64,000 nt of DNA from Selenobaculum gibii (GTDB lineage: Bacteria; Bacillota; Negativicutes; ICN-92133), in NCBI RefSeq assembly GCF_030273445.1, contig NZ_CP120678.1:476401-540400 (forward strand), given 5' to 3'. This document shows positions 5,872-45,351 of the stretch, piece after piece. Position numbers and translations under genes: made by a program. How positions within the stretch are numbered: the first letter of the stretch is position 1; every line of letters starts with the position of its first letter. The notes beneath the pieces were generated by a model. That model was not told where the DNA came from. It made no database searches and was given only the letters and a program-made list of their open reading frames with translations.

Positions 5872-5880
5872 TGGATAAGT

Positions 5881-8155: not shown

Positions 8156-8157
8156 TC

Positions 8158-9652: not shown

Positions 9653-9720
9653 AAGCTAATATAGAAATAGCAATATTTACTATCAACAAAACGACAAAAA
9701 ACGACATAATATTTTAAATA

Positions 9721-9755: not shown

Positions 9756-9792
9756 GATATTTATAATCTTTATGAAAGAAGCGTGTATTTTT

Positions 9793-10557: not shown

Positions 10558-10580
10558 AAAATGATTATATAGAATACATA

Positions 10581-10627
10581 AAAACGACTACAGTAAGCGA
10601 TTAAATCTAAGTACTGTAGCCGTTTTT
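10581..10627 (+). terminator. Intrinsic terminator after SGNH gene
   Basis: AAAACG-CTACAGTA pairs with TACTGTAG-CGTTTT around an AT loop and is followed by a T tract; it may also stop the convergent minus-strand gene. Confidence 0.85.
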
Positions 10628-10665
10628 TATTTATAGGGATAAATACTTTATTCTGAGAATATGAT

Positions 10666-11328: not shown

Positions 11329-11458
11329 ATAAATCCTCCTGTAAGTTATTATTATATTTAGTGTAAATTTAACATTGAATTGCTGATATTGTCAATTTGT
11401 TTATTTTGGCAAAATGTAGATAAGTTTATTCTGGGGAATAATTGCGTAGTATTTTGGA

Positions 11459-11487
11459 TTGTTTAGAAAATCTGAAAATAATATAAT
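11459..11487 (+). promoter_or_regulatory. Promoter for the Cof-type phosphatase gene
   Basis: TTGTTT (11459-11464), 17-base spacer, perfect TATAAT (11482-11487). It implies a leader of about 190 bases before the phosphatase ATG. Confidence 0.6.
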
Positions 11488-11609
11488 GGATATAATAAAA
11501 CTAAAAAATGAAGAGAGGGAGGCATTATAAAGGAGGTAATATCTTTAGTGCTCATAGTAGTCATTAATTGAAGAGTATCAAGATCAATTGTCTGAACGTT
11601 TTAGGAAGT

Positions 11610-11652
11610 GTAGCTTTCAGATGGAGTAAAAGCTCATCTGAATCAAGTATCA
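11610..11652 (-). repeat. Recurrent hairpin element, copy A
   Basis: TTCAGATGGAG and CTCATCTGAA form a stem with a small loop (11616-11642), followed on the plus strand by the element's typical ATCAAG. Read on the minus strand it starts CTTGATTCAG. It lies about 280 bases upstream of the minus-strand secreted protein gene, farther than the other copies. Confidence 0.6.
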
Positions 11653-11681
11653 TTTTATTAATGGTTAGAAAGTAGGAGATT

Positions 11682-12521: not shown

Positions 12522-12590
12522 AAATTTTCGGATAACCTATCTTTCTTGCTTAATTATAGAAATTTGAACTTTAAATATTGAATATAGAAT

Positions 12591-12624
12591 ATTGTCGTTT
12601 TTTGAATAAATAACGACAATTTTA
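12591..12624 (+). terminator. Intrinsic terminator after the HAD gene
   Basis: ATTGTCGTT pairs with AACGACAAT around a 12-base AT loop and is followed by TTTTATA. Confidence 0.75.
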
Positions 12625-12722
12625 TATAAAATGGTAGAATTTTATAGGAAAAGTTTAGTATAATTAATTATATAAATTTATATAAGATTGTATAAAATAA
12701 TATAAGCAAGAAGGTGAACGAA

Positions 12723-14837
12723 ATGAAGGGGAATTTAGAAAATACAAGTTCATTCTATATAAATGTAGAGAACCGTAATATGTATCAATATTTAAATTTA
12801 ATGCCGATTGCATTTACGGCTATACGAGTTATTGTTGATGAAGTCGGAGCGCCGATTGACTTTATTTGCGAGTTTGCAAATAAAGAATTTGCTATCTTAG
12901 AAAATAAGAACTTAAAGGAAATTATCGGGAAGTCATTTTATGAAATATCCCCTGATGTTTCACAAAAATGGTTAAGAGGCTGTTGGGAAGTCGCTTATAA
13001 AGGGATAATAAGAGAATGGAAGGATTATAGTTCAGGGCTTGGAAAATATTTATCCATTTATTGCTATCAGCCGAAAAAAGGTTTGTGTGCATGCATCATA
13101 AGAGATATAACGCATGATGTTGATATAGCAAATGAATTAAAATATTTGTCTGAATATGATGATTTAACTTGTATCTATAATAAAAGAAGTTTTTATGAAA
13201 AAACACATGACTTGATAATGAACAATTTTGATACGCAATATGTAGTTGGTAGAATTGATATAGAAAAATTTAAGATTGTTAATGATGTTTTTGGAGCGGA
13301 AGAAGGCGATCTTTTACTAAAATATCTTGCAACAAAGATTAAACATTACGTGCAGGATTTTGGTACATATGGTAGATTGGATGCGGATATTTTTGCGGTA
13401 TGTTTTCCTTGGTCGCTAAATAATGTAGAACGGTTTGTCAATTATATGCAAACACAGGTAAAGGAATATCCACTTGACTTTGATGTGATTCCTTGTTTTG
13501 GTTTTTATATTGTTGACGTTGTGACTTTGCCAGTGGATATTATGTGCGATCGAGCAAACCTAGCGTTGCGCACAATTAAAGGGAATTATGTAAAAAGCTA
13601 CGCTATATACGATGATAGATTGCGGAGAAGTCTGATAGAGGAGCAATCTATTGTCAGTCAGATGAATAGTGCTTTGGAGTCTGGTCAATTTGAGTTTTAT
13701 TTGCAACCTAAATGCAGCATTGATACAGGCAATATTGTCGGCGCGGAAGCATTAGTGCGTTGGCGGCATCCGATGAAAGGCTTAATTTCGCCAGGAAAAT
13801 TTATTCCTGTTTTTGAGAAGAATGGCTTTATTTTAAAATTGGATGTGTATATATGGGAATCTGTATGTAAGTTGTTGCGGCAATGGATAGATGAAGGGCG
13901 TCAGCCAATGCCGATATCGGTAAATGTATCTAGAATTAATTTGTATAATCCAAAGCTATGTGATATCTTAATTGGTTTGGTTGAGAAGTATCAATTAGAA
14001 CCTTATCTATTAGAGTTAGAACTAACAGAAAGTGCCTATACAGAGAATGAGAAGCTATTGGTTTCTATTATTGAAAGATTAAGAGGATATGGTTTTCGAA
14101 TATTGATGGATGATTTTGGAAGTGGATATTCGTCCTTAAATATTTTAAAAAACTTGCCAGTTGATGTGTTGAAAATTGATTTACATTTTCTTGGCGGCAG
14201 TGATAAATTTAATCGAGGGGGGAATATACTTACTTCGGTTGTTCGTATGGCAAAGTGGATGGCGCTTCCTGTTATTGTTGAAGGGGTAGAAACGCGTGAA
14301 CAAGTGGATTTCCTCTGCAGTATTGCTTGTACAACAGCACAGGGGTATTATTTCTCGCCGCCGATTCCAGTACTTGATTATGAAAAAATGTTGGATTCTT
14401 TAGTGAAATGTAATGAAAATTTAAGTATAACGTTTGAAACAGATATACAATTAAAGGATTTTTGGGATCAGAATTCTGGGAAAAATGTATTATTCAATAC
14501 GTTAATTGGGGCAGTAGCAATTTATGAGCTCTGTCAGGATAATCTTGAAATGTTGCGTGCAAATGACGACTATTTTAAAATGGTAGAATGGTCAAGAGAG
14601 GACTTTTTTGCCAAAAGTCATAAAATGCTCGACTATATTCATCATGAGGATCGAAAGCGTATTTTAAAAATATTTTATGAAGCTGTAGGAAGGCGTGAAA
14701 TTTTAACTTGTAAATTTCGTCGGTTTATATCAGAGGACAAGTATATTTCGATATATGCCAAAATAAGATTTATCGCAGGCAGTCATGACAGGTTTCTATT
14801 TTTTGCAGCTATGGAAAAAACATCAGAGGTTTTTTAG
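12723..14837 (+). CDS. PAS-GGDEF(degenerate)-EAL-PAS cyclic di-GMP phosphodiesterase
   Basis: A 704-residue cytoplasmic protein. A PAS domain (about 20-130) precedes a GGDEF-fold domain whose signature is RLDADIF (218-224), so it cannot be a cyclase. The EAL domain (about 310-565) has a complete active site: EALVRW (E342), SVN, ELTES, DDFGSGYSSL, LKID, VEGVET and AQGYYF. A second PAS-like domain (about 575-700) is C-terminal, an unusual position. It should hydrolyse c-di-GMP to pGpG under PAS control. The start is ATG 12723 after AAGGTG; the in-frame GTG at 12714 overlaps that site. It precedes the TRAP-TAXI cluster but has its own terminator. Confidence 0.92.
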   Translation: MKGNLENTSSFYINVENRNMYQYLNLMPIAFTAIRVIVDEVGAPIDFICEFANKEFAILENKNLKEIIGKSFYEISPDVSQKWLRGCWEVAYKGIIREWKDYSSGLGKYLSIYCYQPKKGLCACIIRDITHDVDIANELKYLSEYDDLTCIYNKRSFYEKTHDLIMNNFDTQYVVGRIDIEKFKIVNDVFGAEEGDLLLKYLATKIKHYVQDFGTYGRLDADIFAVCFPWSLNNVERFVNYMQTQVKEYPLDFDVIPCFGFYIVDVVTLPVDIMCDRANLALRTIKGNYVKSYAIYDDRLRRSLIEEQSIVSQMNSALESGQFEFYLQPKCSIDTGNIVGAEALVRWRHPMKGLISPGKFIPVFEKNGFILKLDVYIWESVCKLLRQWIDEGRQPMPISVNVSRINLYNPKLCDILIGLVEKYQLEPYLLELELTESAYTENEKLLVSIIERLRGYGFRILMDDFGSGYSSLNILKNLPVDVLKIDLHFLGGSDKFNRGGNILTSVVRMAKWMALPVIVEGVETREQVDFLCSIACTTAQGYYFSPPIPVLDYEKMLDSLVKCNENLSITFETDIQLKDFWDQNSGKNVLFNTLIGAVAIYELCQDNLEMLRANDDYFKMVEWSREDFFAKSHKMLDYIHHEDRKRILKIFYEAVGRREILTCKFRRFISEDKYISIYAKIRFIAGSHDRFLFFAAMEKTSEVF

Positions 14838-34152: not shown

Positions 34153-34181
34153 TTGACATTGATAATCATTATCAATATAAT
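34153..34181 (+). promoter_or_regulatory. Promoter of the heme/iron operon
   Basis: TTGACA (34153-34158), exactly 17 bases, TATAAT (34176-34181): both hexamers are perfect. The spacer is the Fur operator, so bound Fur would block polymerase directly. Confidence 0.9.
34158..34176. promoter_or_regulatory. Fur box
   Basis: ATTGATAATCATTATCAAT is a perfect 9-1-9 palindrome and contains the 7-1-7 Fur consensus TGATAATnATTATCA. It lies between the -35 and -10 hexamers, so the operon should be repressed in iron-replete cells. Confidence 0.93.
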
Positions 34182-34187
34182 AATGTT

Positions 34188-34268
34188 TGACGAAAGCAAA
34201 AGCAAAAGGTAAAAATTAGAGGGCCTATAGAGCTCCGTACATATATTGATATATGTGCGGATTTTTTT
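34188..34268 (+). ncRNA. Leader with intrinsic terminator; candidate Fur-regulated small RNA or attenuator
   Basis: From the predicted start near 34188 the transcript has an A-rich stretch and then CCGTACATATA paired with TATATGTGCGG (34235-34260) and seven T residues (34262-34268), a standard intrinsic terminator. This would release an RNA of about 80 bases unless bypassed. The exbB ribosome site lies 25 bases further on. A Fur promoter, a short RNA and a terminator is the layout of RyhB-like sRNAs; alternatively it is a transcription attenuator for the operon. Confidence 0.55.
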
Positions 34269-34303
34269 CGTTAAAAATTCGTATTTATGTAGTGGAGGTC
34301 AAG

Positions 34304-34924
34304 ATGGAAGAGTTTTTAAAATGTTTTGATTGGTTTGTGCAAGGGGGGCTTGTGATGTATCCCTTACTATTTTGTTCAATCTTTGTTGTAGCAATTGCCA
34401 TTGAACGTTTCTTATTTTATCGTAATCATTGTGGGCAGATGATGACATTTTTACAAGCGGTGAAAAATTCTGTAGCTGAAGGAAAGTGGCAGGAAATCCA
34501 AGATGAATGTTTAGTTCATGATAATATATTAAGCCGTATCTTAGGGCAAGGATTAAGATACCGTAAAAATTTTGATTATATGAAAGAAAGTTTTGAGAGT
34601 CTGACGGTTGCAGAAACAACGGGATTACGCAAAAATTTAAGTTATTTAGATACCATTGTAACCATGGCTCCTTTATTAGGGCTACTTGGTACAGTTATGG
34701 GGATGATTGGTTCGTTTCAAGTTCTTGATATTGCAGGTAGCAATCCATCGGTGATTACGGGAAGTGTTGGCGAAGCATTAATTGCGACAGCTTCGGGACT
34801 TTGTGTCGCAGTTTTGGCACTAACCGTTCATAGTTATTTTACTCACTGGCTTGATCATATTGTTACACATATTGAACAGACTTGTATTATGATACTAGAA
34901 AAAAATAAAGGTGAATTATTATGA
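34304..34924 (+). CDS. exbB: ExbB/TolQ-family proton channel protein
   Basis: A 206-residue inner-membrane protein with three helices and the MotA/TolQ/ExbB core: ETTGLRKNLSYLDTIVTMAPLLGLLGTVMGMIGSF and then EALIATASGLCVAV. With ExbD it uses the proton gradient to energise TonB. ATG 34304 follows GGAGGTC. Its stop overlaps the exbD start (ATGA). It is the first protein gene of the Fur-controlled operon. Confidence 0.94.
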   Translation: MEEFLKCFDWFVQGGLVMYPLLFCSIFVVAIAIERFLFYRNHCGQMMTFLQAVKNSVAEGKWQEIQDECLVHDNILSRILGQGLRYRKNFDYMKESFESLTVAETTGLRKNLSYLDTIVTMAPLLGLLGTVMGMIGSFQVLDIAGSNPSVITGSVGEALIATASGLCVAVLALTVHSYFTHWLDHIVTHIEQTCIMILEKNKGELL

Positions 34925-35331
34925 AGGTAAGAAGTGCACGAATTGAGTCTTCGCCTAAATTAATGATTATTCCAATGATTGATATTATTTTCTTTTTATT
35001 AGTATTTTTTATGATGAGTACGTTGAATATGATACATCAAAAAGCGTTACCAGTAGATTTGCCAAAAGCGATGACTGCGAATCAGATGGAAAGAAAAACA
35101 ACGTCGATTACTTTGTTGGCAGATGGGATGATTCAAATAGATGAAACAATTGTATCCAAAGCGGAAATGAAAAATTCTGTGATGCAAAAGCTTCAGGAGA
35201 ATAATGAAATGGCAGTTGTATTACGGGCTGATAAATTGACGGAACATGGAAAAGTAATTGAAGTGATGGATACCTTAAAAGAAGTTGGAGTAAAAAAACT
35301 TTCAATTGCTGCAGAAAAGAAAGGAACGTGA
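34921..35331 (+). CDS. exbD: ExbD/TolR-family biopolymer transport protein
   Basis: A 136-residue protein with one N-terminal helix (about 17-36) containing the essential Asp (IPMIDIIFFLLVFFM) and a periplasmic ExbD domain. It overlaps exbB by four bases and forms the ExbB-ExbD motor. The presence of this motor in an otherwise Firmicute-like genome points to a diderm envelope. Confidence 0.94.
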   Translation: MKVRSARIESSPKLMIIPMIDIIFFLLVFFMMSTLNMIHQKALPVDLPKAMTANQMERKTTSITLLADGMIQIDETIVSKAEMKNSVMQKLQENNEMAVVLRADKLTEHGKVIEVMDTLKEVGVKKLSIAAEKKGT

Positions 35332-35336
35332 TGTAA

Positions 35337-36083
35337 GTGCAAACTTATTGTTCGGATTTTTTAGGGCGCAGCTTTAGAATCTCGTGTGCGATACATGTTT
35401 TGCTCCTTGCGCTGATGGGAACAACCTTTTCCGAGATGCATAAACCGGAAAAAAACGTTGATGAATATATTTTTATTGATATTGAAGAGCCGGCTGCGCA
35501 AGTTGATGAGAAATCTTTTATAACAAACCACTTGGAACAGGTAATACAGCCACCTTCTTTAACAAAAAATTCTGCTATGCAAGAACAAAAAAATTTAACA
35601 CAGCAGCAAGTAACAGCGCAATCTTCTTATCATAAAGATAAGCAAGCAATCGGATCTGTGAATGCTCCTACGTCTGGCAGTGCCGGTTATGGACTGGAGA
35701 GCAATAGGAATGATGCTGGTGCTGGACAGGAAAAAGCGCAAGGGCAAGCTGATTTTGTATCTGCAACAAGCGAAGCAATTACTTCTGGTGGTTATCAAAC
35801 GGTCAATATTGCACAGCTTGCAACTCAATTTGCAAGTTTGGTTGAGGCAAAAAAAGAGTACCCTTATATCGCATTAAAACGTGGTGAGACGGGCAGAGTT
35901 GGTGTTCTTGTACGCTTAAATGCGGATGGGAGTTTAGCTGCAGCAGAAGTGATGCAATCGTCAGGGGTAAAAAGTTTAGATGCGGGGGCAATTAAAGCAG
36001 TGCAGAAAGCTTGTCCGTTTATTCATGGTGCAAAACAAGTCATTGAATTTATGGTTCCGATTTATTATGAATTGAATGGATAA
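35337..36083 (+). CDS. tonB: TonB-family energy transducer
   Basis: A 248-residue protein with an N-terminal helix (about 14-30), a variable Gln/Ser/Gly-rich linker (about 60-150) and a C-terminal TonB domain: RGETGRVGVLVRLNADGSLAAAEVMQSSGVKSLDAGAIKAV, ending VPIYYELNG. The linker is not the Pro-rich type of E. coli TonB. It transfers energy from ExbBD to the receptor encoded at 42496. The start is GTG 35337, five bases after the exbD stop, with AAGGA upstream. Confidence 0.9.
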   Translation: MQTYCSDFLGRSFRISCAIHVLLLALMGTTFSEMHKPEKNVDEYIFIDIEEPAAQVDEKSFITNHLEQVIQPPSLTKNSAMQEQKNLTQQQVTAQSSYHKDKQAIGSVNAPTSGSAGYGLESNRNDAGAGQEKAQGQADFVSATSEAITSGGYQTVNIAQLATQFASLVEAKKEYPYIALKRGETGRVGVLVRLNADGSLAAAEVMQSSGVKSLDAGAIKAVQKACPFIHGAKQVIEFMVPIYYELNG

Positions 36084-36097
36084 TGGAGGATAAGGTC

Positions 36098-36241
36098 ATG
36101 CAGCGAGAAAGTGAAAAGTCAAAACAGGAATTGCCACAAAAACGTTGTGGAAACTGTAATCGACTTTTGTTTTATGGCTATGCAAAATCATTAAAGATAA
36201 AATGTCCAAAATGCGGCAATATTCTTTTTTTTGAAAATTGA
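36098..36241 (+). CDS. Small Com-like zinc-ribbon protein
   Basis: A 47-residue protein with a CGNC...CPKC zinc ribbon (C17, C20, C35, C38) resembling the Mu Com family: CxxCNRLLF, then an IKCPKCG segment. GGAGG lies seven bases upstream of ATG 36098, so translation is very likely. It is embedded between tonB and the binding-protein gene, 14 and 41 bases from them. Mu Com is a translational regulator; whether this one binds RNA, or handles metal, is unknown. Confidence 0.75.
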   Translation: MQRESEKSKQELPQKRCGNCNRLLFYGYAKSLKIKCPKCGNILFFEN

Positions 36242-36242
36242 A

Positions 36243-36257
36243 TGAGAATGATAATCA
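36243..36257. promoter_or_regulatory. Second Fur-like site, inside the operon
   Basis: TGAGAATGATAATCA matches the 7-1-7 Fur consensus with two differences. It lies just before the binding-protein gene. No good promoter surrounds it, so it may be a weak internal operator. Confidence 0.5.
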
Positions 36258-36282
36258 AAATCCCGAAAGGAAACTTTACTGA

Positions 36283-37236
36283 ATGAAAAAAATTAGTGTA
36301 ATAATCATAAGTGGACTTATTCTTTTATTTGGCTGTTTGTATTTTGTGAATCAGAATACTGAAAAAAATAGCAATGACCAACAAAAAGTTGTCGATAGTT
36401 TGAAGCGAGAGGTGATGATTCCGAAACATCCACAGCGGGTGGTGATTTTAAATGCATCAAATTTAGAATTATTTTGTGCAGTAGGTGGAGCTGAGTTTGT
36501 TGTTGGTAAGCCGACTTCACAGGCATTGTCGGAAAAAATTCAATTAAACACAAAAAATGCGGCAGAAGTAGGCGTGATTCATAGCCCTGATATTGAGAAA
36601 ATTTTAGAGCTTAAACCAGATTTAGTGGTGGGGATTAATGTCCCGTTTCATCATTCTTTGATTCCAATTTTGGAAGCTGCCAATATTCCACTCTATGTAC
36701 GAGCTTTAGATACCTATGAAGATGTAATTGAAACTTTAGATTTTTATGGAAAGTTAACGAACAAAGAACAAAAAGCACAGGAACAAATTGATTTTGTTCA
36801 GGCGAAATATAAGCAAGCATTATCTTTAGCGGAGGGGAAACAAGCGCCGAAAAATTTAATCATCTGGGGTTCAACAGAGAGCTTTAATATGGCAACAAGT
36901 CAGAGCTTTGTTGGAGATTTAGTAAATCGTCTGGGGGGGAATAATATTGCGGATCGTACGGAAGGTGAAACAGGCAGTTTCGTTCCATTAAGTATGGAAT
37001 ATATTGCAAAAGAAAATCCGGAAGTGATTTTTCTTGTTACCCATAGTTCGGATGAAAAAGTAAATCAAAAATTTCAGAATGAATTGGCAAAACATCCTGC
37101 ATGGCAAGGGATTCAAGCAGTAAAAAATGGGCGTGTGTATACGCTCCCTTATGAATTGTTTGCAGTAAATCCGGGAACGCAGGTTGCTGAAGCAATGTGT
37201 ATTTTAGCAGAAAAACTTTATCCGGAGGGTAAATAA
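36283..37236 (+). CDS. Heme/iron-complex ABC transporter substrate-binding lipoprotein
   Basis: A 317-residue class III (BtuF/FhuD/HmuT-like) binding protein. The signal peptide has a lipobox (LFGC). Then come the family segments KHPQRVVILNASNLEL, SPDIEKILELKPDLVVG, GDLVNRLGGNNIAD and HPAWQGIQAVKNGRVYTLP. It should deliver heme or another iron-tetrapyrrole or siderophore from the periplasm to the permease encoded next. A stop-to-start gap of two bases and the operon context with a heme-degrading enzyme favour heme. Confidence 0.9.
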   Translation: MKKISVIIISGLILLFGCLYFVNQNTEKNSNDQQKVVDSLKREVMIPKHPQRVVILNASNLELFCAVGGAEFVVGKPTSQALSEKIQLNTKNAAEVGVIHSPDIEKILELKPDLVVGINVPFHHSLIPILEAANIPLYVRALDTYEDVIETLDFYGKLTNKEQKAQEQIDFVQAKYKQALSLAEGKQAPKNLIIWGSTESFNMATSQSFVGDLVNRLGGNNIADRTEGETGSFVPLSMEYIAKENPEVIFLVTHSSDEKVNQKFQNELAKHPAWQGIQAVKNGRVYTLPYELFAVNPGTQVAEAMCILAEKLYPEGK

Positions 37237-37238
37237 GT

Positions 37239-38255
37239 GTGATGATACAAACGAAAGTTTCCGAGGATCCACGATTGAAAAAACGAACGCTTGTCATGCT
37301 TGCAGGTTTAGTTGCCGTTATTTTAACAATTATCACAGGGGTTACTTTTGGTGCGGTAGAAATTCCTTTTACAGAATTTTGGGCGGCAATGACACAAAAA
37401 GAAATAACGGAAAATTATCAAATCTTATTTCAAATTCGTATTCCCCGTGTGATTGTCGGTGCGCTGACTGGAATGAATTTAGCTTTGGCAGGTTGTATTT
37501 TGCAAGGAATTTTGCGTAATCCGTTAGCTGATCCTGGTATTATTGGTGTATCAGCCGGAGCTGGCGTGGCGGCAATGCTCGTGATGGTACTTTACCCTGA
37601 GCAAACAATGCTTGTGCCAATGGTTGCTTTTCTTGGCGCGTTAATTGCAACAGGATTGGTATTTTTATTGTCCTGGGAACGGGGGATTCATCCATTGAGA
37701 ATGATTTTAGCAGGAGTTGCAGTTGGAGCTTTTTTTGGTGGGGCGATGAGTGCTATTATGGTGTTTCATTCGGATAAAATTCAAGGTACGGTAAATTGGC
37801 TGGCTGGTGGTTTTCAAGGGCGTTCTTGGGAACATGTCAAAATGATTTTGCCTTATAGTCTAATTGGAGTCGTTGGAATAATGATTGGTTCTAGGTATTT
37901 AAATGCGTTGCAGCTTGGCGATGATATGGCGAAAAGCATCGGTACAAATGTAGAAAAAATACGGTTTTATATGGTAACGCTGGCGGCGCTACTTGCGGCA
38001 TCGGCGGTAAGTGTAGCCGGTATGCTCGGTTTTGTCGGTTTGGTTGTGCCACATATGATTCGAATGCTGGTAGGTTCTGATTTTGAATATTTATTGCCTT
38101 GTTCAGCCTTGTTTGGCGCTGCGTTAGTCGTTGGCGCAGATACGGTTGCAAGGACTGCATTTTCACCAATTGAAGTGCCCGTGGGTATCTTTATGGCATT
38201 TTTAGGTGCACCATTTTTCTTATATTTATTAAAAAAGGGGTTGAGAAAGGAATGA
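37239..38255 (+). CDS. FecCD-type ABC permease (HmuU-like)
   Basis: A 338-residue permease with about ten helices, the FecCD family length. Typical blocks: RIPRVIVGALTGMNLALAGCILQGILRNPLADPGIIGVSAGAG, GTVNWLAGGFQG, and GFVGLVVPHMIRMLVG. It imports the iron complex carried by the upstream lipoprotein. Start GTG 37239 or ATG 37242; GGAGGGT precedes both. It overlaps the ATPase gene by four bases. Confidence 0.95.
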   Translation: MMIQTKVSEDPRLKKRTLVMLAGLVAVILTIITGVTFGAVEIPFTEFWAAMTQKEITENYQILFQIRIPRVIVGALTGMNLALAGCILQGILRNPLADPGIIGVSAGAGVAAMLVMVLYPEQTMLVPMVAFLGALIATGLVFLLSWERGIHPLRMILAGVAVGAFFGGAMSAIMVFHSDKIQGTVNWLAGGFQGRSWEHVKMILPYSLIGVVGIMIGSRYLNALQLGDDMAKSIGTNVEKIRFYMVTLAALLAASAVSVAGMLGFVGLVVPHMIRMLVGSDFEYLLPCSALFGAALVVGADTVARTAFSPIEVPVGIFMAFLGAPFFLYLLKKGLRKE

Positions 38256-39052
38256 TTTTGGAAGCGCAATCCTTGAAACTTCAATACGGAACAAAAACGA
38301 TTATTGAAGAAATGAACTTTTCAGTGGATAAGTCAGAAATTATTTCAATTATCGGTCCAAATGGATCGGGGAAATCGACGTTGCTAAAATCGCTGGGACG
38401 CCTTTTAGTCCCAACAAAAGGCAAGGTGCTTCTCAGTGAAACAGATATTTTTCATATGGAGATTGGTAAGTTTACGAGGAAAGTTGCCATTGTTCCGCAA
38501 TCAGCGTCAGCGCCAGGTGATATGACGGTGTATGATCTTGTTGCTTACGGGCGGATGCCATATCAGAAGCTGTTTGGCGAGAGAACTCAGGCAGATGAAA
38601 CGGCGATTGAAGAAGCGATGATAAAAACAGGTGTTGTACATATGAAATATCGGCGACTAGATGCTTTATCAGGTGGAGAGCGACAGAGAGTTTGGCTTGC
38701 GCTTGCGCTTGCGCAGAAACCGGAGATTTTACTTTTGGATGAGCCGACAACGTATTTAGATATTCATCATCAGTTAGAGATCATGCATTTAGTGCAAAAT
38801 TTGCAACAGATGTTAAAAATGACAGTCATTATGGTTCTCCATGATTTGAACCATGCAGCACGCTTTAGCCATCGCCTCGTTGCTGTAAAACAGGGGAAGA
38901 TTCTCGCGGATGGCAAAGTGGAAGATGTGTTTACGACGGAAACGTTACGTGAATTGTACGGCGTAGAGCCAAACATTATGAGAATTCAGCAGGGAGGAAA
39001 AGAACAACTCGTTTGTTTTCCACAGGAATGTTGCTTAAAAACAGGAGCGTGA
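38252..39052 (+). CDS. Iron-complex/heme ABC importer ATPase (FecE/HmuV-like)
   Basis: A 266-residue ATPase with Walker A GPNGSGKST, signature LSGGERQRV, Walker B LLLDEPTTYLD and switch His HDLNHAARF, the FecE/FhuC/HmuV subgroup. It overlaps the permease gene by four bases and completes the importer. The ATPase of the next transporter begins two bases after its stop. Confidence 0.95.
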   Translation: MILEAQSLKLQYGTKTIIEEMNFSVDKSEIISIIGPNGSGKSTLLKSLGRLLVPTKGKVLLSETDIFHMEIGKFTRKVAIVPQSASAPGDMTVYDLVAYGRMPYQKLFGERTQADETAIEEAMIKTGVVHMKYRRLDALSGGERQRVWLALALAQKPEILLLDEPTTYLDIHHQLEIMHLVQNLQQMLKMTVIMVLHDLNHAARFSHRLVAVKQGKILADGKVEDVFTTETLRELYGVEPNIMRIQQGGKEQLVCFPQECCLKTGA

Positions 39053-39053
39053 A

Positions 39054-39794
39054 ATGGTTAGCTTTAGCATAGAAAATATTCGAAAAAAATATGGGCAAAA
39101 AGAAGTATTAAAGGGCGTATCAATTTTTGCAAATCATGGTGAAGTTATAGGGCTGATCGGTACGAATGGAGCAGGCAAGACAACATTGATTAAGATTATC
39201 GCTGGATTGAGTAAGGCTGATGCAGGAACGATCAATATTTTAAAGAGTTGCCCAATAAAAAATCGTACTTTGGTTAGACAACAAATTGCTTTAGTTCCAC
39301 AAGAAAATAATTTAGAGCGTGAGTGCAGTGTATTTGAAGTTTTATATTTATATGCGCGATTATTTGGGGTAGTAGAGGCAAAAAAGCGTGTGAGGGAAAT
39401 TTTGCATGAATTTACAATGCAAGACTGGCAAACGAAGAAGGTAGAGCATTTGTCGGGAGGGATGGCGAGAAAAGTTTTAATCGCTCGGGCGATGCTTACC
39501 AATCCTAAAATTATATTGCTGGATGAGCCAAGCGTTGGACTTGATCCTGATGTAAGGCAAGAAATCTGGCAGATGATTTTACAATTAAGAAGTTTAGGTA
39601 AGACAATTTTGATTACGACGCATTATATGGATGAAGCAGAATTTCTTTGTGATAGAGTTGCGTTATTGAAAGAGGGAAGACTACTTTATATGGATACAGT
39701 AGAAGGTTTGAAAGAGCATGTGCAAGTTGCGACGGAAAAAATCAGTTTAGAAACAGCGTTTTTACATTTTGTCCGTGAAAAGGAGAAGCTGTAG
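39054..39794 (+). CDS. ABC-2 exporter ATPase (CcmA/NodI-like)
   Basis: A 246-residue ATPase of the drug/polysaccharide export subgroup: Walker A GTNGAGKTT, signature LSGGMARKV, Walker B ILLDEPSVGLDPDVR and TTHYMDEAE. It is coupled to the ABC-2 permease gene by a one-base overlap. Within a heme uptake and degradation operon it may expel a tetrapyrrole product, surplus heme or a siderophore-like molecule; this is inference from context. Confidence 0.9.
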   Translation: MVSFSIENIRKKYGQKEVLKGVSIFANHGEVIGLIGTNGAGKTTLIKIIAGLSKADAGTINILKSCPIKNRTLVRQQIALVPQENNLERECSVFEVLYLYARLFGVVEAKKRVREILHEFTMQDWQTKKVEHLSGGMARKVLIARAMLTNPKIILLDEPSVGLDPDVRQEIWQMILQLRSLGKTILITTHYMDEAEFLCDRVALLKEGRLLYMDTVEGLKEHVQVATEKISLETAFLHFVREKEKL

Positions 39795-40528
39795 TGGGTT
39801 GGTTGGCAGTATATCAACGAGAAATGGTGTTGATGCAAAAGAAGATTGGCAAACTTGGTTATGTATTTTCAACGCTGCTTTTTCCTTTAATCTATTTATT
39901 TGCTTTTGGTTGGGGGATTGGCGGGAATATTTCTGTCGAAGGTGGATATGTACCTTTTTTAGCTAAGGGGATGGTCACAATTACCGTTATGTTAAATGCG
40001 TTTCAGCAAACAGCTTTATCGGTAAGCGTAGGAAGATTCTATTTTGGCAGTTTTCAAACGTTGATGTTGAGTCCTGTATCGCTCAAACAGATTGCACTTG
40101 GTATTGTATTAAGTGGAATGACACGGGGAATTTTAGCAGGTACTTCCATTTACGCAATTGCGATGCTGATTTTTGATGTACCGATGATGAATCTCCCTGG
40201 AATACTGGGGATTATTTTGACTTCAATTTGTTTTGCTTCTTTTGGAATCGCTGTTGGCATGTGGGTGAAGAATCCTGATTCTTTATCTTTAGTCATTAAT
40301 TTTTTGATTACACCGATGACGTTTTTTTGTGGTTCGTTTTTCCCAATTCATAACTTGCCGACTGTGGTAAAAGGAATCGTAAAGTTTTTGCCGCTTAGTT
40401 TAGCAAATGACTTGTTAAGAATGAATGCGTGGACAATAGAGGTAATTTATGCGATGGGAATCCTCGTTTTTATGGCGCTGCTTATGTTTCTTTTCGGCGT
40501 TTATCAATTGAATCAATATACAGAATAA
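39794..40528 (+). CDS. ABC-2 type exporter permease
   Basis: A 244-residue membrane protein with six helices of the ABC-2 family: VSVGRFYFGSFQTLMLSPVS and the late NFLITPMTFFCGSFFPIHNLP motif typical of NodJ/DrrB-like permeases. Start GTG 39794 overlaps the ATPase stop. It forms an exporter with the preceding ATPase; substrate unknown. Confidence 0.9.
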   Translation: MGWLAVYQREMVLMQKKIGKLGYVFSTLLFPLIYLFAFGWGIGGNISVEGGYVPFLAKGMVTITVMLNAFQQTALSVSVGRFYFGSFQTLMLSPVSLKQIALGIVLSGMTRGILAGTSIYAIAMLIFDVPMMNLPGILGIILTSICFASFGIAVGMWVKNPDSLSLVINFLITPMTFFCGSFFPIHNLPTVVKGIVKFLPLSLANDLLRMNAWTIEVIYAMGILVFMALLMFLFGVYQLNQYTE

Positions 40529-40544
40529 TAGGAGTGTTTAATTT

Positions 40545-41063
40545 ATGAAAAGTTTAGTTGTTTATTCAAGTTTAACTGGAAATACAAAAATGGTTGCGGA
40601 GGCAATTGTTGAAGAATTGGGTGAAAATACTGTGTTAGCAGCTGTTGAAGAAAATCCGTCCGTAGAATCGTATGATTTAGTTGCCGTAGGCTTTTGGGTA
40701 GATAGAGGGACTGCCGATAGAAAGAGTGCAGATTATTTAGGAACGATTAAAAATAAACGGGTAGCTTTATTTGCTACTTTAGGTGCTGATCCTCATTCAG
40801 ATCATGCCAAGAAAAGTTTGGAGAATGCGGCTGCTTTATTAGATGCATCGAATGAAGTTGTTGGTCAGTTTATTTGTCAGGGAAAAGTTGATCCTAAATT
40901 AATTGAAAAAATGGAAAAAATGTTCTCGGCGAATCATCCGCATGGGATGAATGAAGAGCGTAAAGCACGTCACAAAATAGCGAGTACACATCCTGATACA
41001 AATGATTTATTAGCGGCAAAGACTGTGTTTAATAAAATCAAGTCGGAATTGTTAGGAGGCTAA
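40545..41063 (+). CDS. Flavodoxin-family protein, probable electron donor in heme breakdown
   Basis: A 172-residue flavodoxin-fold protein. The FMN phosphate loop is SSLTGNTKM near the N-terminus, followed by VGFWVDRGTAD and LFATLGADP. It is only three bases upstream of the ChuW/HutW-like radical SAM gene. In Fusobacterium a flavodoxin-family protein works with the related HmuW in heme trafficking and anaerobilin reduction, so a similar role is likely. The His-rich segment SANHPHGMN (about 127-135) could contribute to heme binding; that is speculative. Confidence 0.88.
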   Translation: MKSLVVYSSLTGNTKMVAEAIVEELGENTVLAAVEENPSVESYDLVAVGFWVDRGTADRKSADYLGTIKNKRVALFATLGADPHSDHAKKSLENAAALLDASNEVVGQFICQGKVDPKLIEKMEKMFSANHPHGMNEERKARHKIASTHPDTNDLLAAKTVFNKIKSELLGG

Positions 41064-41066
41064 AGG

Positions 41067-42473
41067 ATGAAAAAAACATTAGCAGAAATTTTGGCTCAAA
41101 TGAATGAAGAACAATACCGCTTGACCGTTGGAAAAAATACAGATCATCCATTGCAAGATGCATTTGATAAGAAAAGAGTTGTTCATCCAAGTGTGCAAGG
41201 ACGGCCTCTAAGTGAAGAAGAAAGGCTGATTGCTTGGCAAAATACAATGCATACAGAACTGATAAAAGTAGAAAAGCGCACTGCCTATATCCATATCCCT
41301 TTTTGTAGCCATATTTGTTTATATTGTGGTTTTTTTCAAAACTACTCGAATGAAGAACGAGAAACGCTTTATGTGGATTGTTTAATCAAAGAATTATCCA
41401 TGTCGGCAAATGATTGCTATTTAAAGAATGGACTTATTCATGCGGTATTCATTGGAGGGGGAACACCTAGTGCTTTATCCTCGTACAATGTAACGCGTGT
41501 TTTACAGGCAATTCAAATGTATTTGCCGTTAGCGAATGATTGTGAGATTACGCTTGAGGCGCGTATTCATGATTTAGTGAAAGAGAAAATGGATGCGTGG
41601 TTTGCCTGTGGTGTGAATCGAGTTTCAGTTGGGGTACAATCCTTTCTCACGAACCTTAGAAAGTCGATGGGGCGCTTAGATGATTATGAAACGGTGGTTG
41701 CCAGATTAAAAGAGTTAGCAGCCTATGGACAAGCTTCGATTATTATTGATTTAATTTATGGATTGCCGGGGCAGACAGTTGAGGATTTATTGTTTGATTT
41801 GCAAATGGTAGACAGTTTGCCGATTGATGGCATGGATCTTTATCAATTAAATTTATTTGATGTAAGTCCGTTAAAAAAAGCGATTGATGCAGGGAATTTA
41901 CCACCAGCGGCTACAACCGCGGAGCAAGCACAAATGTTTGCCATTGCAAATGCTTGGCTAAAAGAGCGCGCGTATAGACAATTGAGTAATTGTCACTGGG
42001 CAAAGGGGATACGTGAGCGCAATATGTATAACTTACTAACAAAAAGTGGAGCAGAAGTATTTGCTTTTGGTTCTGGTGCTGGAGGAAACATCGGCGCATA
42101 TAGTATTTTCTTACAACGTGATTTAAAAAAATATATGGAAAACATTCAAGCGGGCAAAAAACCGTTGATGTTTATGGCAAAGAAATCAGCGAAGCAAGAG
42201 CTGCACAATGACATGCTAAGACAATTAGAAAGCGGCTATTTTAATTTAGAATTTTTAGCAGCAAAATATGGTGGGTGTATAAGAGAACTAGATTATTTAC
42301 TTGAAATTTGGCAAAAGCATGGATTGGTTAACAAGGGGAAAGTATTGAGTCGTTTAACTGAGGCAGGACAATTTTGGCATATTAATATTGCGCAGTCGTT
42401 ACTTGAATGTACAGAGGCTTTACTTGAGGGTAATTTAAAAACAGAAGTACAGGCGATTGCAGCGCAAGGGTAG
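41067..42473 (+). CDS. hutW: Anaerobic heme-degrading radical SAM enzyme, ChuW/HutW family
   Basis: A 468-residue radical SAM protein. The cluster motif is CSHICLYC (C80, C84, C87) within HIPFCSHICLYCGFFQN, a ChuW/HutW signature. Other matching blocks are FIGGGTPSALS, NRVSVGVQSF, DLIYGLPGQT and the N-terminal KRVVHPSVQGRPLS. In E. coli O157 ChuW opens the heme ring by SAM-dependent radical methyl transfer without oxygen, releasing iron and giving anaerobilin. HemN-like coproporphyrinogen oxidase is the main alternative, but the N-terminus, the operon and the FFQN pattern argue for ChuW/HutW. It follows the flavodoxin gene by three bases. Confidence 0.93.
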   Translation: MKKTLAEILAQMNEEQYRLTVGKNTDHPLQDAFDKKRVVHPSVQGRPLSEEERLIAWQNTMHTELIKVEKRTAYIHIPFCSHICLYCGFFQNYSNEERETLYVDCLIKELSMSANDCYLKNGLIHAVFIGGGTPSALSSYNVTRVLQAIQMYLPLANDCEITLEARIHDLVKEKMDAWFACGVNRVSVGVQSFLTNLRKSMGRLDDYETVVARLKELAAYGQASIIIDLIYGLPGQTVEDLLFDLQMVDSLPIDGMDLYQLNLFDVSPLKKAIDAGNLPPAATTAEQAQMFAIANAWLKERAYRQLSNCHWAKGIRERNMYNLLTKSGAEVFAFGSGAGGNIGAYSIFLQRDLKKYMENIQAGKKPLMFMAKKSAKQELHNDMLRQLESGYFNLEFLAAKYGGCIRELDYLLEIWQKHGLVNKGKVLSRLTEAGQFWHINIAQSLLECTEALLEGNLKTEVQAIAAQG

Positions 42474-42495
42474 AAAAGGGAGGAGAAAGTAAAAG

Positions 42496-44439
42496 ATGAG
42501 ATTCGTTGGCAAAAATAAAAAAGCATTATTAACCATGGCAATAGGATTATATCTAACGGCGCCGGTATCTGCTGCGCAGGCAAATGATGAAATCGTGCAA
42601 AGTAGAGATGTTATCGTTTCGGCTACCAGAACGCAGCAAGAAATTAAAGAAACTCCAGCGAGCGTAGAGGTAATCACGCGCGAAGATATTGAAAACCTTG
42701 GGGCAGATAGTGTAGTAAGTGCATTAAAATTAGCGGCTAACGTAGATATTACGAAAACGGGAATGACAGGGAAGAAGGTATCTATTCGCGGTATGAATAC
42801 GAGCCAAACTCTTATATTAATTGATGGACGGCGTATGGCAGGTGAAGATACGTCAGTTACGGCCAATTTTTATGAATTGGATCGGATTAATTTGACCAAT
42901 GTTGAACGAATTGAAATTGTGCGTGGACCAGTCAGCTCGCTTTACGGTTCGGATGCACTTGGCGGTGTGATCAATATTATTACGAGAAAATCAGATGCAA
43001 CGACAAGCCAACTTGGTTTATCCACAGGAAGTGAACAAAGAAATGTGGATTATCATTTAGATTTAGGAAAAAATGGGAAATGGGCCTGGAGTTTTGATAC
43101 TCGTTATAGCGATATTCTGAAACAGACCTATGCAACTGAAAACACCAACATGTTTGGTGATCGTCATTTCTTTAATATTTCAGGAACTTATGATTTGACA
43201 GAAGATAAAAAAATAGATGTGTTTTATGAGTATATGAAAGAGAATTTAGAGGAAGATTATGCTTCTGGGAACAAAGAGTATTGGGAAAATCAAAGACGTT
43301 CTTATGGCATTACTTATCGTGGTGAAAAAGCGGCGGGCGATTATGAACTTCGAATGTACTTTAATAAGTTAGAAAAAGATGATAATACATATACTTCTGC
43401 TAGGAAATTGAGTGATTTTGATGTTGCAAAATACGAAACTTTCGTTGTCGATGGCAAAAATACAACACAAATTGGCGATAATCATTTACTGACTTATGGT
43501 GGGGAATATCGTCAAACTTCTTATCGAGGGACTAGATTAGGAAATGGTGGAGATGATATCTTTAGCATTGAACGGGATGGCGTAACGAAAACTGGTTCAG
43601 AAGCAACGATTGATTATTATGCAGCATACGTACAAGATGAATGGGTGATAAATGATCGTTTATTAGTGATTCCATCCTTGCGTTATGATGATAGTGACAA
43701 ATTTGGTGATAAAGTAAGTCCGAAAATTGGCATGACGTATAAAATGAATGATAATTATCGGTTAAAAGCAAGTTATGGAACTGGATTCAAAGCCCCGAGT
43801 ATCAGTGAACTGTATATGAATATGACACGTCAAATGGGAACGATGAAAGTTACTGTAGCCGGTAATCCAGACTTACAGCCAGAAGAATCTAAAAACTTTG
43901 AATTGAGTTTAGAAGGCGAACGTGGCAATAGTTTTGGAAAATTAACTTATTTTCACAATGATGTAGATAATTTAATTGGGACAGAAACAAAAATGAGTTA
44001 TATTCCAGGTTCCGGAATGGTAGCGACAAGCAAATACGTCAATGTTAATAAAGCAAAAATTGATGGTGTCGAATTGGAATTGGGACGTCATTTAAATGAT
44101 AAATGGACGGTAAAACTGACAAGTAATTATTTAGACGCAATTGATAAAAAAGATGATTCAAGATTAGAAGATCGTGCAAAAAATCGGACAACATTACAGT
44201 TGCAATATGATGATATAGACAATAGTGGTATCCATGCAGTGATTTGGAATGAGTGGATAAATGAATATCGTTATAGTAAATCGGATTATGATTATAGTAC
44301 ATTTAATGTCAGCGTAAGTAAAAAATTCAATGACACCGTGAATGGCTATGTTGCAGTAGAAAATATCTTTGATAAAAAGATAGATGACTTAGCAATTGAC
44401 GGTAGAGTTTGGAGATGTGGAGTTCAAATGCAATTATGA
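42496..44439 (+). CDS. TonB-dependent outer-membrane receptor, likely heme
   Basis: A 647-residue receptor: signal peptide (about 1-27), a TonB box near DVIVSAT, a plug domain (about 40-155, with IRGMNTSQTLILIDGRR and RGPVSSLYGSDALGGVINIIT) and a 22-strand-type barrel. FKAP (431-434) and NPDL (457-460) correspond to the FRAP and NPNL boxes of heme receptors. The His usually found between them is missing; instead there are four Met (441, 443, 447, 450). Operon context points to heme or a heme protein as ligand. It overlaps the next gene by four bases. Confidence 0.93.
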   Translation: MRFVGKNKKALLTMAIGLYLTAPVSAAQANDEIVQSRDVIVSATRTQQEIKETPASVEVITREDIENLGADSVVSALKLAANVDITKTGMTGKKVSIRGMNTSQTLILIDGRRMAGEDTSVTANFYELDRINLTNVERIEIVRGPVSSLYGSDALGGVINIITRKSDATTSQLGLSTGSEQRNVDYHLDLGKNGKWAWSFDTRYSDILKQTYATENTNMFGDRHFFNISGTYDLTEDKKIDVFYEYMKENLEEDYASGNKEYWENQRRSYGITYRGEKAAGDYELRMYFNKLEKDDNTYTSARKLSDFDVAKYETFVVDGKNTTQIGDNHLLTYGGEYRQTSYRGTRLGNGGDDIFSIERDGVTKTGSEATIDYYAAYVQDEWVINDRLLVIPSLRYDDSDKFGDKVSPKIGMTYKMNDNYRLKASYGTGFKAPSISELYMNMTRQMGTMKVTVAGNPDLQPEESKNFELSLEGERGNSFGKLTYFHNDVDNLIGTETKMSYIPGSGMVATSKYVNVNKAKIDGVELELGRHLNDKWTVKLTSNYLDAIDKKDDSRLEDRAKNRTTLQLQYDDIDNSGIHAVIWNEWINEYRYSKSDYDYSTFNVSVSKKFNDTVNGYVAVENIFDKKIDDLAIDGRVWRCGVQMQL

Positions 44440-45314
44440 TGCGTAAATGGTTATCAGTAATTTTTATTGTGGGAGTGTTTTTTATCAGTTTACCAATGCA
44501 GGCAGAGGCAGCATTGCAAGATGGTTTTTATCAGAAAAATGGCGAACTGTTATCGGTTAAAGACGTTGCCCGTCGTTTTTCAACGTATGATGTGATTTTC
44601 TTTGGGGAATATCATGATAATACATGGATTCATGAACAAGAAAATGAATTTTTAAAAGCTTTATATAAAGAAAAGCCCAATTTAATTTTGTCGTTAGAAA
44701 TGTTTGAACGCGATGTACAGCCTTATTTAGATAAATATTTGAGAAATCAAATTTCTGAAAAAGATTTTTTAGAAAATTCACGTCCGTGGAAGAACTATTC
44801 AGAGGATTATAAACCTTGTATTGAGTTTGCAAAAAATAAACAAATTGCCGTATTGGGCGGAAATATCCCGCGCTATCTAGCCGCTGAATATGCGAAAAGT
44901 GGAACGCTATACAGCATAGAAGAAGTTAAGAAAAAGTATCTGCCATCTAAGCATATCGTGAATCATGATGTGTATTATGCTGCATTTGTTTCTTATATGA
45001 AATCGGGACAGGTTGGGATGCGACTGGATGATGCACAGATTGAAAGGTATTATCAAGCGCAATGCTTAAAAGATGATGCGATGGCGGAAAGTATAGTTGA
45101 AGCATTAAAGCAGAATAAAGGTAAAACTATTCTTCATTTACAAGGGGAGTTTCATGGGAGAAATCGACTTGGCGTAGTAGAGAAGGTACGGTTATTGAAT
45201 CCTAATTTACGTACCGGACTGATTACCTCTGTTTATGTGAGCTCAGAAGCAGAAAAAAATTTGGCAATACAAAATTTAGCAGACGGAGATATTGCACTTA
45301 TTGTTCAAAAATAA
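44436..45314 (+). CDS. ChaN-like heme-binding protein (Tiki/ChaN domain)
   Basis: A 292-residue protein with a signal peptide (about 1-26, MQAEA-A). The mature domain has the ChaN pattern: VIFFGEYHDNTWIHEQENEFLKAL, LSLEMFERDVQPYLDKYL and LHLQGEFHGRNRLGV. Campylobacter ChaN is an iron-regulated lipoprotein that binds stacked heme molecules; here there is no lipobox, so the protein may be periplasmic. It overlaps the receptor gene (ATGA) and is the last gene of the operon. Start is ATG 44436 or the next ATG at 44439. Confidence 0.9.
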   Translation: MMRKWLSVIFIVGVFFISLPMQAEAALQDGFYQKNGELLSVKDVARRFSTYDVIFFGEYHDNTWIHEQENEFLKALYKEKPNLILSLEMFERDVQPYLDKYLRNQISEKDFLENSRPWKNYSEDYKPCIEFAKNKQIAVLGGNIPRYLAAEYAKSGTLYSIEEVKKKYLPSKHIVNHDVYYAAFVSYMKSGQVGMRLDDAQIERYYQAQCLKDDAMAESIVEALKQNKGKTILHLQGEFHGRNRLGVVEKVRLLNPNLRTGLITSVYVSSEAEKNLAIQNLADGDIALIVQK

Positions 45315-45315
45315 G

Positions 45316-45351
45316 AAAAGTACCGAAGAAAATTTTCTTCGGTACTTTTTT
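45316..45351. terminator. Bidirectional intrinsic terminator ending the heme operon
   Basis: AAAAGTACCGAAGAAA and TTTCTTCGGTACTTTT form a near-perfect stem with T tails on both strands; it also ends the convergent amidohydrolase gene. Confidence 0.92.

What the first reader, a model, noticed from the sequence alone, without database searches (positions are those of the whole stretch)
34153..45351. A complete Fur-controlled heme capture and oxygen-free heme degradation operon in a diderm Firmicute
Eleven to twelve tightly packed genes run without an internal strong terminator from a consensus Fur-regulated promoter to a bidirectional terminator. They cover each step: outer-membrane receptor, ChaN-type heme holder, TonB-ExbBD motor, binding protein with permease and ATPase, ChuW/HutW radical SAM enzyme and a flavodoxin donor, plus an ABC-2 exporter and a small zinc ribbon. 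Seen: gene order, motifs, overlaps. Known: ChuW/HutW open heme anaerobically; a Fusobacterium flavodoxin works with HmuW. Inference: the whole set is one heme-to-iron route including disposal of the tetrapyrrole.
Basis: partly seen in the sequence, partly recalled or inferred. Interest (0 to 1): 0.78.

Follow-up and report, generated by a model that had tools for sequence, protein, structure and literature searches.

The report
Heme-eating operon with an RNA switch
An anaerobic bacterium carries a 13-gene operon that captures heme and opens it without oxygen to get iron, which is a known kind of system, but the operon also appears to be controlled by an undescribed RNA switch in which a tiny zinc protein made by the operon should unlock a transcription stop signal, and to carry its own pump for the leftover pigment.

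Summary
The operon is real: 13 packed genes (not 11-12), exbB-exbD-tonB-zinc ribbon-hmuTUV-ABC-2 pair-hmuF-hmuW-hmuR-chaN. It starts at a perfect Fur box/promoter and ends at a terminator shared with the next gene. hmuW passes the ChuW/HutW cut-off. Its partner is not a plain electron donor but an HmuF/FldH-type heme flavodoxin. Such operons are already published in Fusobacterium and Veillonella.

Two layers look new. (1) The ABC-2 pair belongs to a distinct clade: of 36 members in 301 Negativicutes genomes, 22 sit beside hmuW, 2 in heme operons, 10 beside CobN/ChlI/CbiZ/CbiK, 2 undetermined. It is a tetrapyrrole exporter candidate. It belongs to a conserved RNA element with two GAGNNCC repeats, the selected binding motif of the phage Mu zinc finger Com. 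The operon's 52-aa zinc ribbon is a Com-family protein. In 201 genomes the element occurs in 21, all with this protein (p=1.6e-26), before heme/iron uptake genes. Relatives fuse the ribbon to a cytoplasmic heme-binding-type domain. Best model: Com-like antitermination of a Fur-controlled heme operon. Binding and direction of regulation are untested.

The parts
34153..34181 (+). sigma-70 type promoter TTGACA-17-TATAAT with an embedded Fur-type palindrome TGATAATCATTATCA at 34160-34174
   Evidence: 12/12 consensus; 14/14 Fur palindrome, sole exact match in window
34205..34273 (+). conserved leader RNA element R1 (candidate Com-type attenuator)
   Evidence: cmsearch 47.8 bits, E 9.4e-13 in window, only hit in the genome; no Rfam family
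34219..34236 (+). tandem GAGNNCC repeats GAGGGCC-TATA-GAGCTCC (spacer 4 nt)
   Evidence: sequence; matches the SELEX consensus of Com except for spacer 4 instead of 2-3 (PMC6483171)
34230..34268 (+). intrinsic terminator whose 5' arm contains the second repeat
   Evidence: 12-bp core stem plus T7
34304..34924 (+). exbB
   Evidence: PF01618 4.5e-29; GGAGG ribosome site before ATG 34304
34921..35331 (+). exbD
   Evidence: PF02472 8.8e-29
35337..36083 (+). tonB
   Evidence: PF03544 1.2e-14
36083..36241 (+). Com-family zinc ribbon, 52 aa, CxxC...CxxC; candidate RNA-binding antiterminator
   Evidence: PF10122 Zn_ribbon_Com 7.1e-9, 35.4 bits over cut-off 22.9; co-occurrence with R1
36243..36257 (+). 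second Fur-like site in the zinc ribbon-hmuT gap
   Evidence: 12/14; 1.35 such sites expected per 64 kb by chance
36283..37236 (+). hmuT, substrate-binding lipoprotein, IsdE-like
   Evidence: PF01497 2.7e-43; best PDB relative IsdE 2q8p 1.1e-23; His254 aligned with the IsdE His in LPHGM
37239..38255 (+). hmuU, FecCD-type permease
   Evidence: PF01032 1.2e-100
38252..39052 (+). hmuV, import ATPase
   Evidence: PF00005 9.1e-33; Fe-dicitrate and heme ATPase models best
39054..39794 (+). abcA, ATPase of the ABC-2 exporter
   Evidence: PF00005 1.1e-34
39794..40528 (+). abcB, ABC-2 (type V) permease, tetrapyrrole-linked clade
   Evidence: PF01061 4.9e-19; clade and neighbourhoods; type V exporter folds best
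40545..41063 (+). hmuF, HmuF/FldH-type heme flavodoxin
   Evidence: PF12641 1e-59; PDB 8g64 FldH 3.3e-24 by sequence, model TM 0.81, E 1e-14; His133 = FldH His134
41067..42473 (+). hmuW, ChuW/HutW radical SAM anaerobilin synthase
   Evidence: TIGR04107 495.7 bits over cut-off 400; CxxxCxxC at 80-87
42496..44439 (+). hmuR, TonB-dependent receptor
   Evidence: PF00593 5.1e-52 and PF07715 1.5e-27; heme-receptor model 216.7 bits, below cut-off 316.85
44436..45314 (+). chaN, heme-binding lipoprotein family
   Evidence: PF04187 1.1e-53
45316..45349 (.). terminator between convergent genes
   Evidence: 15-bp inverted repeat

Best explanation
This is a Fur-controlled heme-to-iron operon of the HmuW/HmuF kind with an added RNA-level switch. 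Low iron releases Fur and the leader is transcribed. The leader contains two GAGNNCC repeats; the second forms the 5' arm of an intrinsic terminator, so most transcripts should stop before exbB. The Com-family zinc ribbon encoded by gene 4 binds the tandem repeats as single strand and keeps the terminator from forming, so transcription continues through the 13 genes and the protein amplifies its own synthesis. The products take up heme (HmuR, TonB-ExbBD, ChaN, HmuTUV), HmuF carries heme to HmuW and reduces the anaerobilin that HmuW makes, and AbcAB exports the linear tetrapyrrole. In relatives the zinc ribbon is fused to a cytoplasmic HmuT-like domain, which may let heme gate the switch. Shown here by computation: gene content, Fur box, conserved terminator element, tandem motif, co-occurrence with Com-like genes, fusions, exporter clade. 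Inferred: RNA binding by this protein, antitermination (rather than termination), heme sensing, export substrate. Taken from papers: HmuF/HmuW chemistry, Com motif.
For: HutW equivalog over cut-off. HmuF nearest to FldH by sequence and model, with the axial His invariant in 27 homologs. Fur sites at 23/63 loci versus 0 for controls. Leader element: the terminator was found without using the motif, from Fur box plus hairpin. The covariance model finds 61 matches of >=32.8 bits in 21 of 201 genomes. Of 57 examined, 56 lie before hmuT, hmuR, tonB, exbB or the zinc-ribbon gene, and 51 carry tandem GAGNNCC, 48 of them with spacing 2-3, as in the Com SELEX consensus NGAGNNCC(N)2-3GAGNNCCNN; 20 of 24 matches outside the training set carry it too. 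Stem changes compensate: 18 two-sided changes versus 4.0 in shuffles, 0/500. Com-like gene and element co-occur: 21 both, 2 gene only, 0 element only, 178 neither, p=1.6e-26; within 87 hmuW-positive genomes p=3e-18. In family f11, GAGGACC-TA-GAGTCCC plus terminator precedes a Com-like gene and then FeoAB. In 5 of 6 out-of-class loci, elements with GAGAGCC/GAGCCCC flank Com-like genes. 14 zinc ribbon-Peripla_BP_2 fusions have no signal peptide and all keep the IsdE-type His.
Against: The window's own spacer is 4 nt, outside the 2-3 nt selected with Com, and its element scores lower than most (47.8 bits). Two genomes (G057, G105) have the gene in an identically ordered operon without a detectable element. 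Com's known action is on translation, not transcription, and its SELEX preferred a hairpin-loop context. Co-occurrence is partly one lineage history, since gene and element sit in the same operon. Nothing here measures RNA binding, termination or transport. The exporter's sister clade also lies near CbiK or zinc-uptake genes, so the transported substrate is uncertain. The receptor shows no heme-specific signature.
Confidence: 0.6

Rival explanations
1. Ordinary Fur-only heme operon: the leader hairpin is a leaky terminator that only tunes expression, and the Com-like ribbon does something else such as holding metal.
For: Fur box is perfect; two operons keep the ribbon without an element.
Against: A terminator alone needs no conserved unpaired GAGRGCC box, yet the box is kept across about ten families and matches an experimental Com motif; element and gene co-occur almost perfectly. 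The same pairing recurs next to FeoAB and thiolase genes in other lineages.
Confidence: 0.15
2. The ribbon binds the repeats but represses: it stabilises termination or blocks translation when iron or heme is sufficient, giving negative autoregulation.
For: The gene is inside the operon it would control; fusions with an HmuT-like domain could bring heme as corepressor.
Against: Repeat 2 is the 5' arm of the terminator stem, and Com binds its motif weakly in duplex form and activates its natural target, which favours opening the stem.
Confidence: 0.2
3. The terminated leader is a Fur-controlled small RNA (RyhB-like), with GAGRGCC as seed and the operon expressed by read-through.
For: Short leader with a strong terminator directly after a Fur promoter.
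Against: Copies also sit between hmuW and hmuR inside operons and before each of several genes of one locus, which fits cis control; the tandem Com motif is then unexplained.
Confidence: 0.07
4. AbcAB exports excess heme or a metal chelator, not the opened tetrapyrrole.
For: The sister clade of the exporter occurs beside CbiK/FecCD and zinc-uptake genes; 10 members of the clade itself lie beside corrin/chelatase genes, some near cobalamin riboswitches.
Against: Exporting heme under Fur derepression would be wasteful; 22 of 36 clade members sit beside hmuW and the common theme of the rest is tetrapyrrole processing.
Confidence: 0.35

Closest known systems
hmuTRUVWF operon of Fusobacterium nucleatum and its Veillonella, Leptotrichia, Campylobacter and Treponema counterparts (PMC10404700)
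   Same: Uptake receptor, binding protein, permease, ATPase, HmuW and HmuF together; ExbBD/TonB in several
   Different: The published figure legend lists no ABC-2 exporter, ChaN or Com-like zinc ribbon, and no leader attenuator; these are present here and in many Negativicutes
ChuW (E. coli O157:H7) / HutW (V. cholerae) anaerobilin synthases
   Same: TIGR04107 equivalog, CxxxCxxC radical SAM motif, Fur-controlled heme operon
   Different: Partner is HmuF rather than ChuX/ChuY or HutX/HutZ
Phage Mu Com and its mom mRNA target (PMC6483171)
   Same: PF10122 zinc ribbon with four Cys; tandem GAGNNCC RNA motif next to an inhibitory hairpin
   Different: Chromosomal genes in iron/heme or fatty-acid loci; the inhibitory hairpin is a transcription terminator, not a translation-inhibition structure; fusions to a binding-protein domain
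Protein-controlled terminators such as BglG/LicT, PyrR, TRAP and HutP (from general knowledge)
   Same: Several like-sequence terminators in one regulon, in leaders and between genes, paired with one regulator gene
   Different: Unrelated protein fold and RNA motif; no Rfam family matches
HmuS heme de-chelatase operons (PMC12583661)
   Same: Anaerobic iron release from heme; CobN-like proteins occur beside relatives of AbcAB
   Different: Different chemistry (metal removal, not ring opening); no HmuS in this operon

Membership tests
ChuW/HutW/HmuW anaerobilin synthase | Scores above the TIGR04107 equivalog cut-off | tested here: met
   495.7 versus 400 bits; the HemN/HemW-like paralogs of the genome score at most 205 bits
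ChuW/HutW/HmuW anaerobilin synthase | Radical SAM CxxxCxxC motif | tested here: met
   C80-x3-C84-x2-C87, invariant in 10 homologs
ChuW/HutW/HmuW anaerobilin synthase | Opens heme, releases Fe(II) and anaerobilin | not testable with these tools
   Needs enzyme assay
HmuF/FldH heme flavodoxin | Axial His in the helical cap (FldH His134) | tested here: met
   His133 aligned and invariant in 27 homologs
HmuF/FldH heme flavodoxin | Conserved cap-linker Ala147, His150, Pro151, Asp155 of FldH | tested here: met
   Ala146, His149, Pro150, Asp154 (residues named)
HmuF/FldH heme flavodoxin | Overall fold with helical cap | tested here: met
   Best PDB match 8g64, TM 0.81, E 1e-14; next 4e-7
HmuF/FldH heme flavodoxin | Binds heme and reduces anaerobilin | not testable with these tools
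   Needs protein
BilS flavodoxin (NF045594) | Scores above curated cut-off 155 | tested here: not met
   132.2 bits
TonB-dependent heme receptor | TIGR01785 cut-off and His between FRAP- and NPNL-like boxes | tested here: not met
   216.7 versus 316.85 bits; no His in the FKAP...NPDL segment
Fur regulon | Fur box overlapping the promoter | tested here: met
   14/14 at 34160-34174 inside the promoter; recurrent in relatives
Com-family zinc ribbon (PF10122) | Scores above Pfam cut-off with four Cys | tested here: met
   35.4 versus 22.9 bits; the four Cys invariant in 15 homologs
Com RNA target | NGAGNNCC(N)2-3GAGNNCCNN | tested here: inconclusive
   48 of 57 elements fit exactly; the window copy fits except for a 4-nt spacer
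Com-family zinc ribbon (PF10122) | Sequence-specific RNA binding | not testable with these tools
   Needs binding assay
ABC-2 (type V) exporter | ABC-2 permease domain plus ATPase, type V fold | tested here: met
   PF01061/PF00005; model matches ABCH, KpsM, Wzm and ABCG structures

The most novel reading that the evidence does not exclude
Com-family zinc ribbons are a chromosomal class of RNA-binding antiterminators. They recognise tandem GAGNNCC repeats overlapping intrinsic terminators, control Fur-regulated heme/iron uptake in Negativicutes and other genes in other Bacillota, and in many species are fused to a cytoplasmic binding-protein domain that senses heme, making a heme-gated RNA switch.
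Probability: 0.45. Interest if true: 0.88.

Novelty: new variant of a known kind. Interest (0 to 1): 0.8.

Why it matters
It would add a protein family to the short list of known transcription antiterminators, turn an orphan phage regulator (Com) into a widespread bacterial one with a ready-made RNA motif, and put a heme or iron signal at the RNA level on top of Fur. The exporter clade offers a first candidate for how anaerobes dispose of the tetrapyrrole left after oxygen-free heme opening; I found no report of such an exporter in the papers I could search. Both are testable with small proteins and short RNAs.

Tried and rejected
Plain electron-donor flavodoxin: rejected on family evidence. 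BilS identity: below cut-off. Known riboswitch or Rfam leader at 34205-34273: none. Leader copied elsewhere in the genome: only self-matches by DNA search and one R1 hit. AbcAB exclusive to hmuW: rejected, since 10 clade members lie beside corrin/chelatase genes. Use of the sister ABC-2 clade as a neutral control failed because it is itself near CbiK and zinc-uptake genes. R1 restricted to Negativicutes: rejected by out-of-class hits, which turned out mostly to flank Com-like genes. The second hmuW-type cluster of the genome (C1:2640644) carries no R1. R1 matches at 24-29 bits (e.g. L265, L266) look like noise. ABC exporters of another type (ABC_membrane) lie in some operons lacking AbcAB (7 such, 1 with both, of about 58); suggestive only. 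A heme signature in the receptor could not be shown. Two tool requests failed on coordinates or size and were redone.
Full report
WHAT IS THERE. The window is part of a 2.68-Mb genome of the class that also holds Sporomusa, Propionispora, Selenomonas and Mitsuokella, i.e. a Negativicute (class read from named contigs of the same length as those of same-class genomes). No second species of its family is among the genomes sampled. From 34153 to 45349 lies one likely transcription unit with 13 genes, gaps -4 to +41 nt: exbB, exbD, tonB, a 52-aa zinc ribbon, hmuT, hmuU, hmuV, an ABC-2 ATPase and permease (abcA, abcB), hmuF, hmuW, hmuR, chaN. It begins with a perfect promoter that contains a perfect Fur palindrome, is insulated upstream by a strong terminator after lysE and ends at an inverted repeat between convergent genes.

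THE ENZYMES. hmuW scores 495.7 bits against the ChuW/HutW equivalog (cut-off 400) and carries CxxxCxxC. The neighbouring flavodoxin is closest to FldH of Fusobacterium (PDB 8g64) by sequence and by model (TM 0.81, E 1e-14, next 4e-7); the heme-ligating His134 of FldH corresponds to His133, invariant in 27 homologs, and the cap-linker residues are kept. McGregor et al. showed that HmuF and FldH do not work as one-electron carriers but deliver heme to HmuW and reduce anaerobilin, and described such operons in Veillonella among others. The receptor is a TonB-dependent barrel without a heme signature. HmuT resembles IsdE and keeps the equivalent of its heme-ligand His (that this residue is the ligand is general knowledge).

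HOW COMMON. Among 301 Negativicutes genomes 101 hold a HutW-type gene over the cut-off. In about 58 loci examined, some 54 have hmuF and 39 have it directly adjacent. The exact gene order of the window recurs in another family (L113, L116). Fur-like sites of at least 12/14 lie upstream of 23 of 63 loci and control palindromes give none.

THE EXPORTER. abcB belongs to a sharply separated clade: 36 matches at or above 285 bits, the next at 156. 22 are next to hmuW, 2 are in heme-uptake operons of genomes that have hmuW elsewhere, 10 are next to CobN/ChlI/CbiZ/CbiK genes and 2 are on short contigs (Pfam check of representatives). The tree gives 100/99 support to a clade holding all of these and a Campylobacter MAG in which the pair sits between heme-type uptake genes and a CobN-ChlI-ChlD set. 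None was found in about 384 other Bacillota genomes. The common theme is tetrapyrrole handling, so export of the opened or demetallated tetrapyrrole is the simplest reading. The sister clade, however, is also near CbiK or zinc uptake genes, so I give the substrate only moderate confidence.

THE LEADER SWITCH. Between promoter and exbB there is a strong intrinsic terminator. When leaders after Fur boxes in other loci were scanned for hairpin plus T-run, without using any sequence motif, the hairpins shared GAGCTCCG, and upstream of it a conserved, unpaired GAGRGCC. A covariance model of 34 copies found 61 matches of at least 32.8 bits in 21 of 201 genomes, one of them in this genome. Of 57 examined, 56 precede hmuT, hmuR, tonB, exbB or the zinc-ribbon gene, some between hmuW and hmuR. 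The stem shows compensatory change: 18 two-sided cells versus 4.0 in shuffles, 0 of 500. Rfam has no match.

THE LINK TO COM. The 52-aa ribbon is a Zn_ribbon_Com protein. Com of Mu-like phages is an RNA-binding translational activator whose SELEX consensus is NGAGNNCC(N)2-3GAGNNCCNN (PMC6483171). The leader element fits it: 51 of 57 copies have tandem GAGNNCC, 48 with spacing 2-3, and 20 of 24 copies outside the training set have it. I noted the Com hypothesis before reading the consensus. Com-like genes and the element co-occur in 21 genomes, the gene alone in 2, the element alone in none, neither in 178 (p=1.6e-26). Within the 87 hmuW-positive genomes the figures are 21, 2, 0, 64 (p=3e-18); these tests ignore shared ancestry. 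Independent pairs exist: in family f11, GAGGACC-TA-GAGTCCC with a matching terminator precedes a Com-like gene followed by FeoAB. In other Bacillota, GAGAGCC/GAGCCCC terminators flank Com-like genes beside, for example, thiolase and acyl-CoA dehydrogenase genes. There the NN bases differ and the stem is re-matched while GAG and CC stay, as expected if the protein reads GAGNNCC.

THE FUSIONS. In at least 14 relatives the ribbon is the N-terminus of a Peripla_BP_2 protein (Pfam confirmed in 4). These lack a signal peptide (maximum 12-residue hydropathy 0.77-1.62 against 2.55-3.33 in ordinary HmuT) and keep the IsdE-type His in all 14. A cytoplasmic heme-type binding domain joined to an RNA-binding-type domain suggests a ligand-gated regulator. 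This is inference.

MECHANISM. Because repeat 2 is the 5' arm of the terminator stem and Com binds poorly in duplex, binding should exclude the terminator and allow read-through, with positive feedback because the ribbon gene is gene 4. The opposite sign is possible. In the window the spacer is 4 nt and the element weaker than most; the switch may be less tight here.

VERDICT. The operon is real and of a published kind. Its exporter clade and its Com-type attenuator are, as far as the held papers and databases show, undescribed (the paper library is open-licence only).

Noticed in passing
G000:C1:2640644-2641852 (L046 10016-15114, minus): A second, divergent hmuR-hmuT-hmuW-hmuF cluster in the same genome; its HutW-type protein is about 33-37% identical and just over the family cut-off (408 bits), with relatives in families f16 and f28.
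   Followed up: partly
L154 (Campylobacter sp. MAG) 187-13124: Receptor-T-U-V-abcA-abcB followed by CobN-, ChlI- and ChlD-like genes, no hmuW: the exporter pair beside a different tetrapyrrole metal enzyme.
   Followed up: partly
L281 7149-11451 and L285 (family f11): GAGGACC-TA-GAGTCCC terminator directly before a Com-like gene, followed by an HD-domain-like gene and FeoAB.
   Followed up: partly
L289-L293 (other Bacillota): Two or three GAGAGCC/GAGCCCC terminators flank Com-like genes, several beside thiolase and acyl-CoA dehydrogenase genes.
   Followed up: partly
L288 8007-8090 (G635): A strong R1-like element (50 bits) with no Com-like gene detected in the stretch read.
   Followed up: no
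L180, L183, L186, L142, L185: Cobalamin riboswitches near the CobN/CbiZ-linked relatives of abcAB, suggesting a corrin-related role there.
   Followed up: no
L114 (G127) hmu operon: abcB is reduced to a fragment (44 bits) beside a split abcA, apparently broken in this strain.
   Followed up: no
L058, L060, L061, L062, L104, L114, L119, L134: ABC_membrane-type exporters of about 580 aa in hmuW loci, mostly those lacking abcAB.
   Followed up: partly
window 2537-2639: THF riboswitch (88.7 bits), the only Rfam match in the window at gathering threshold.
   Followed up: no
window 36243-36257: Second Fur-like site in the 41-nt gap before hmuT, possibly an internal Fur-controlled start.
   Followed up: partly
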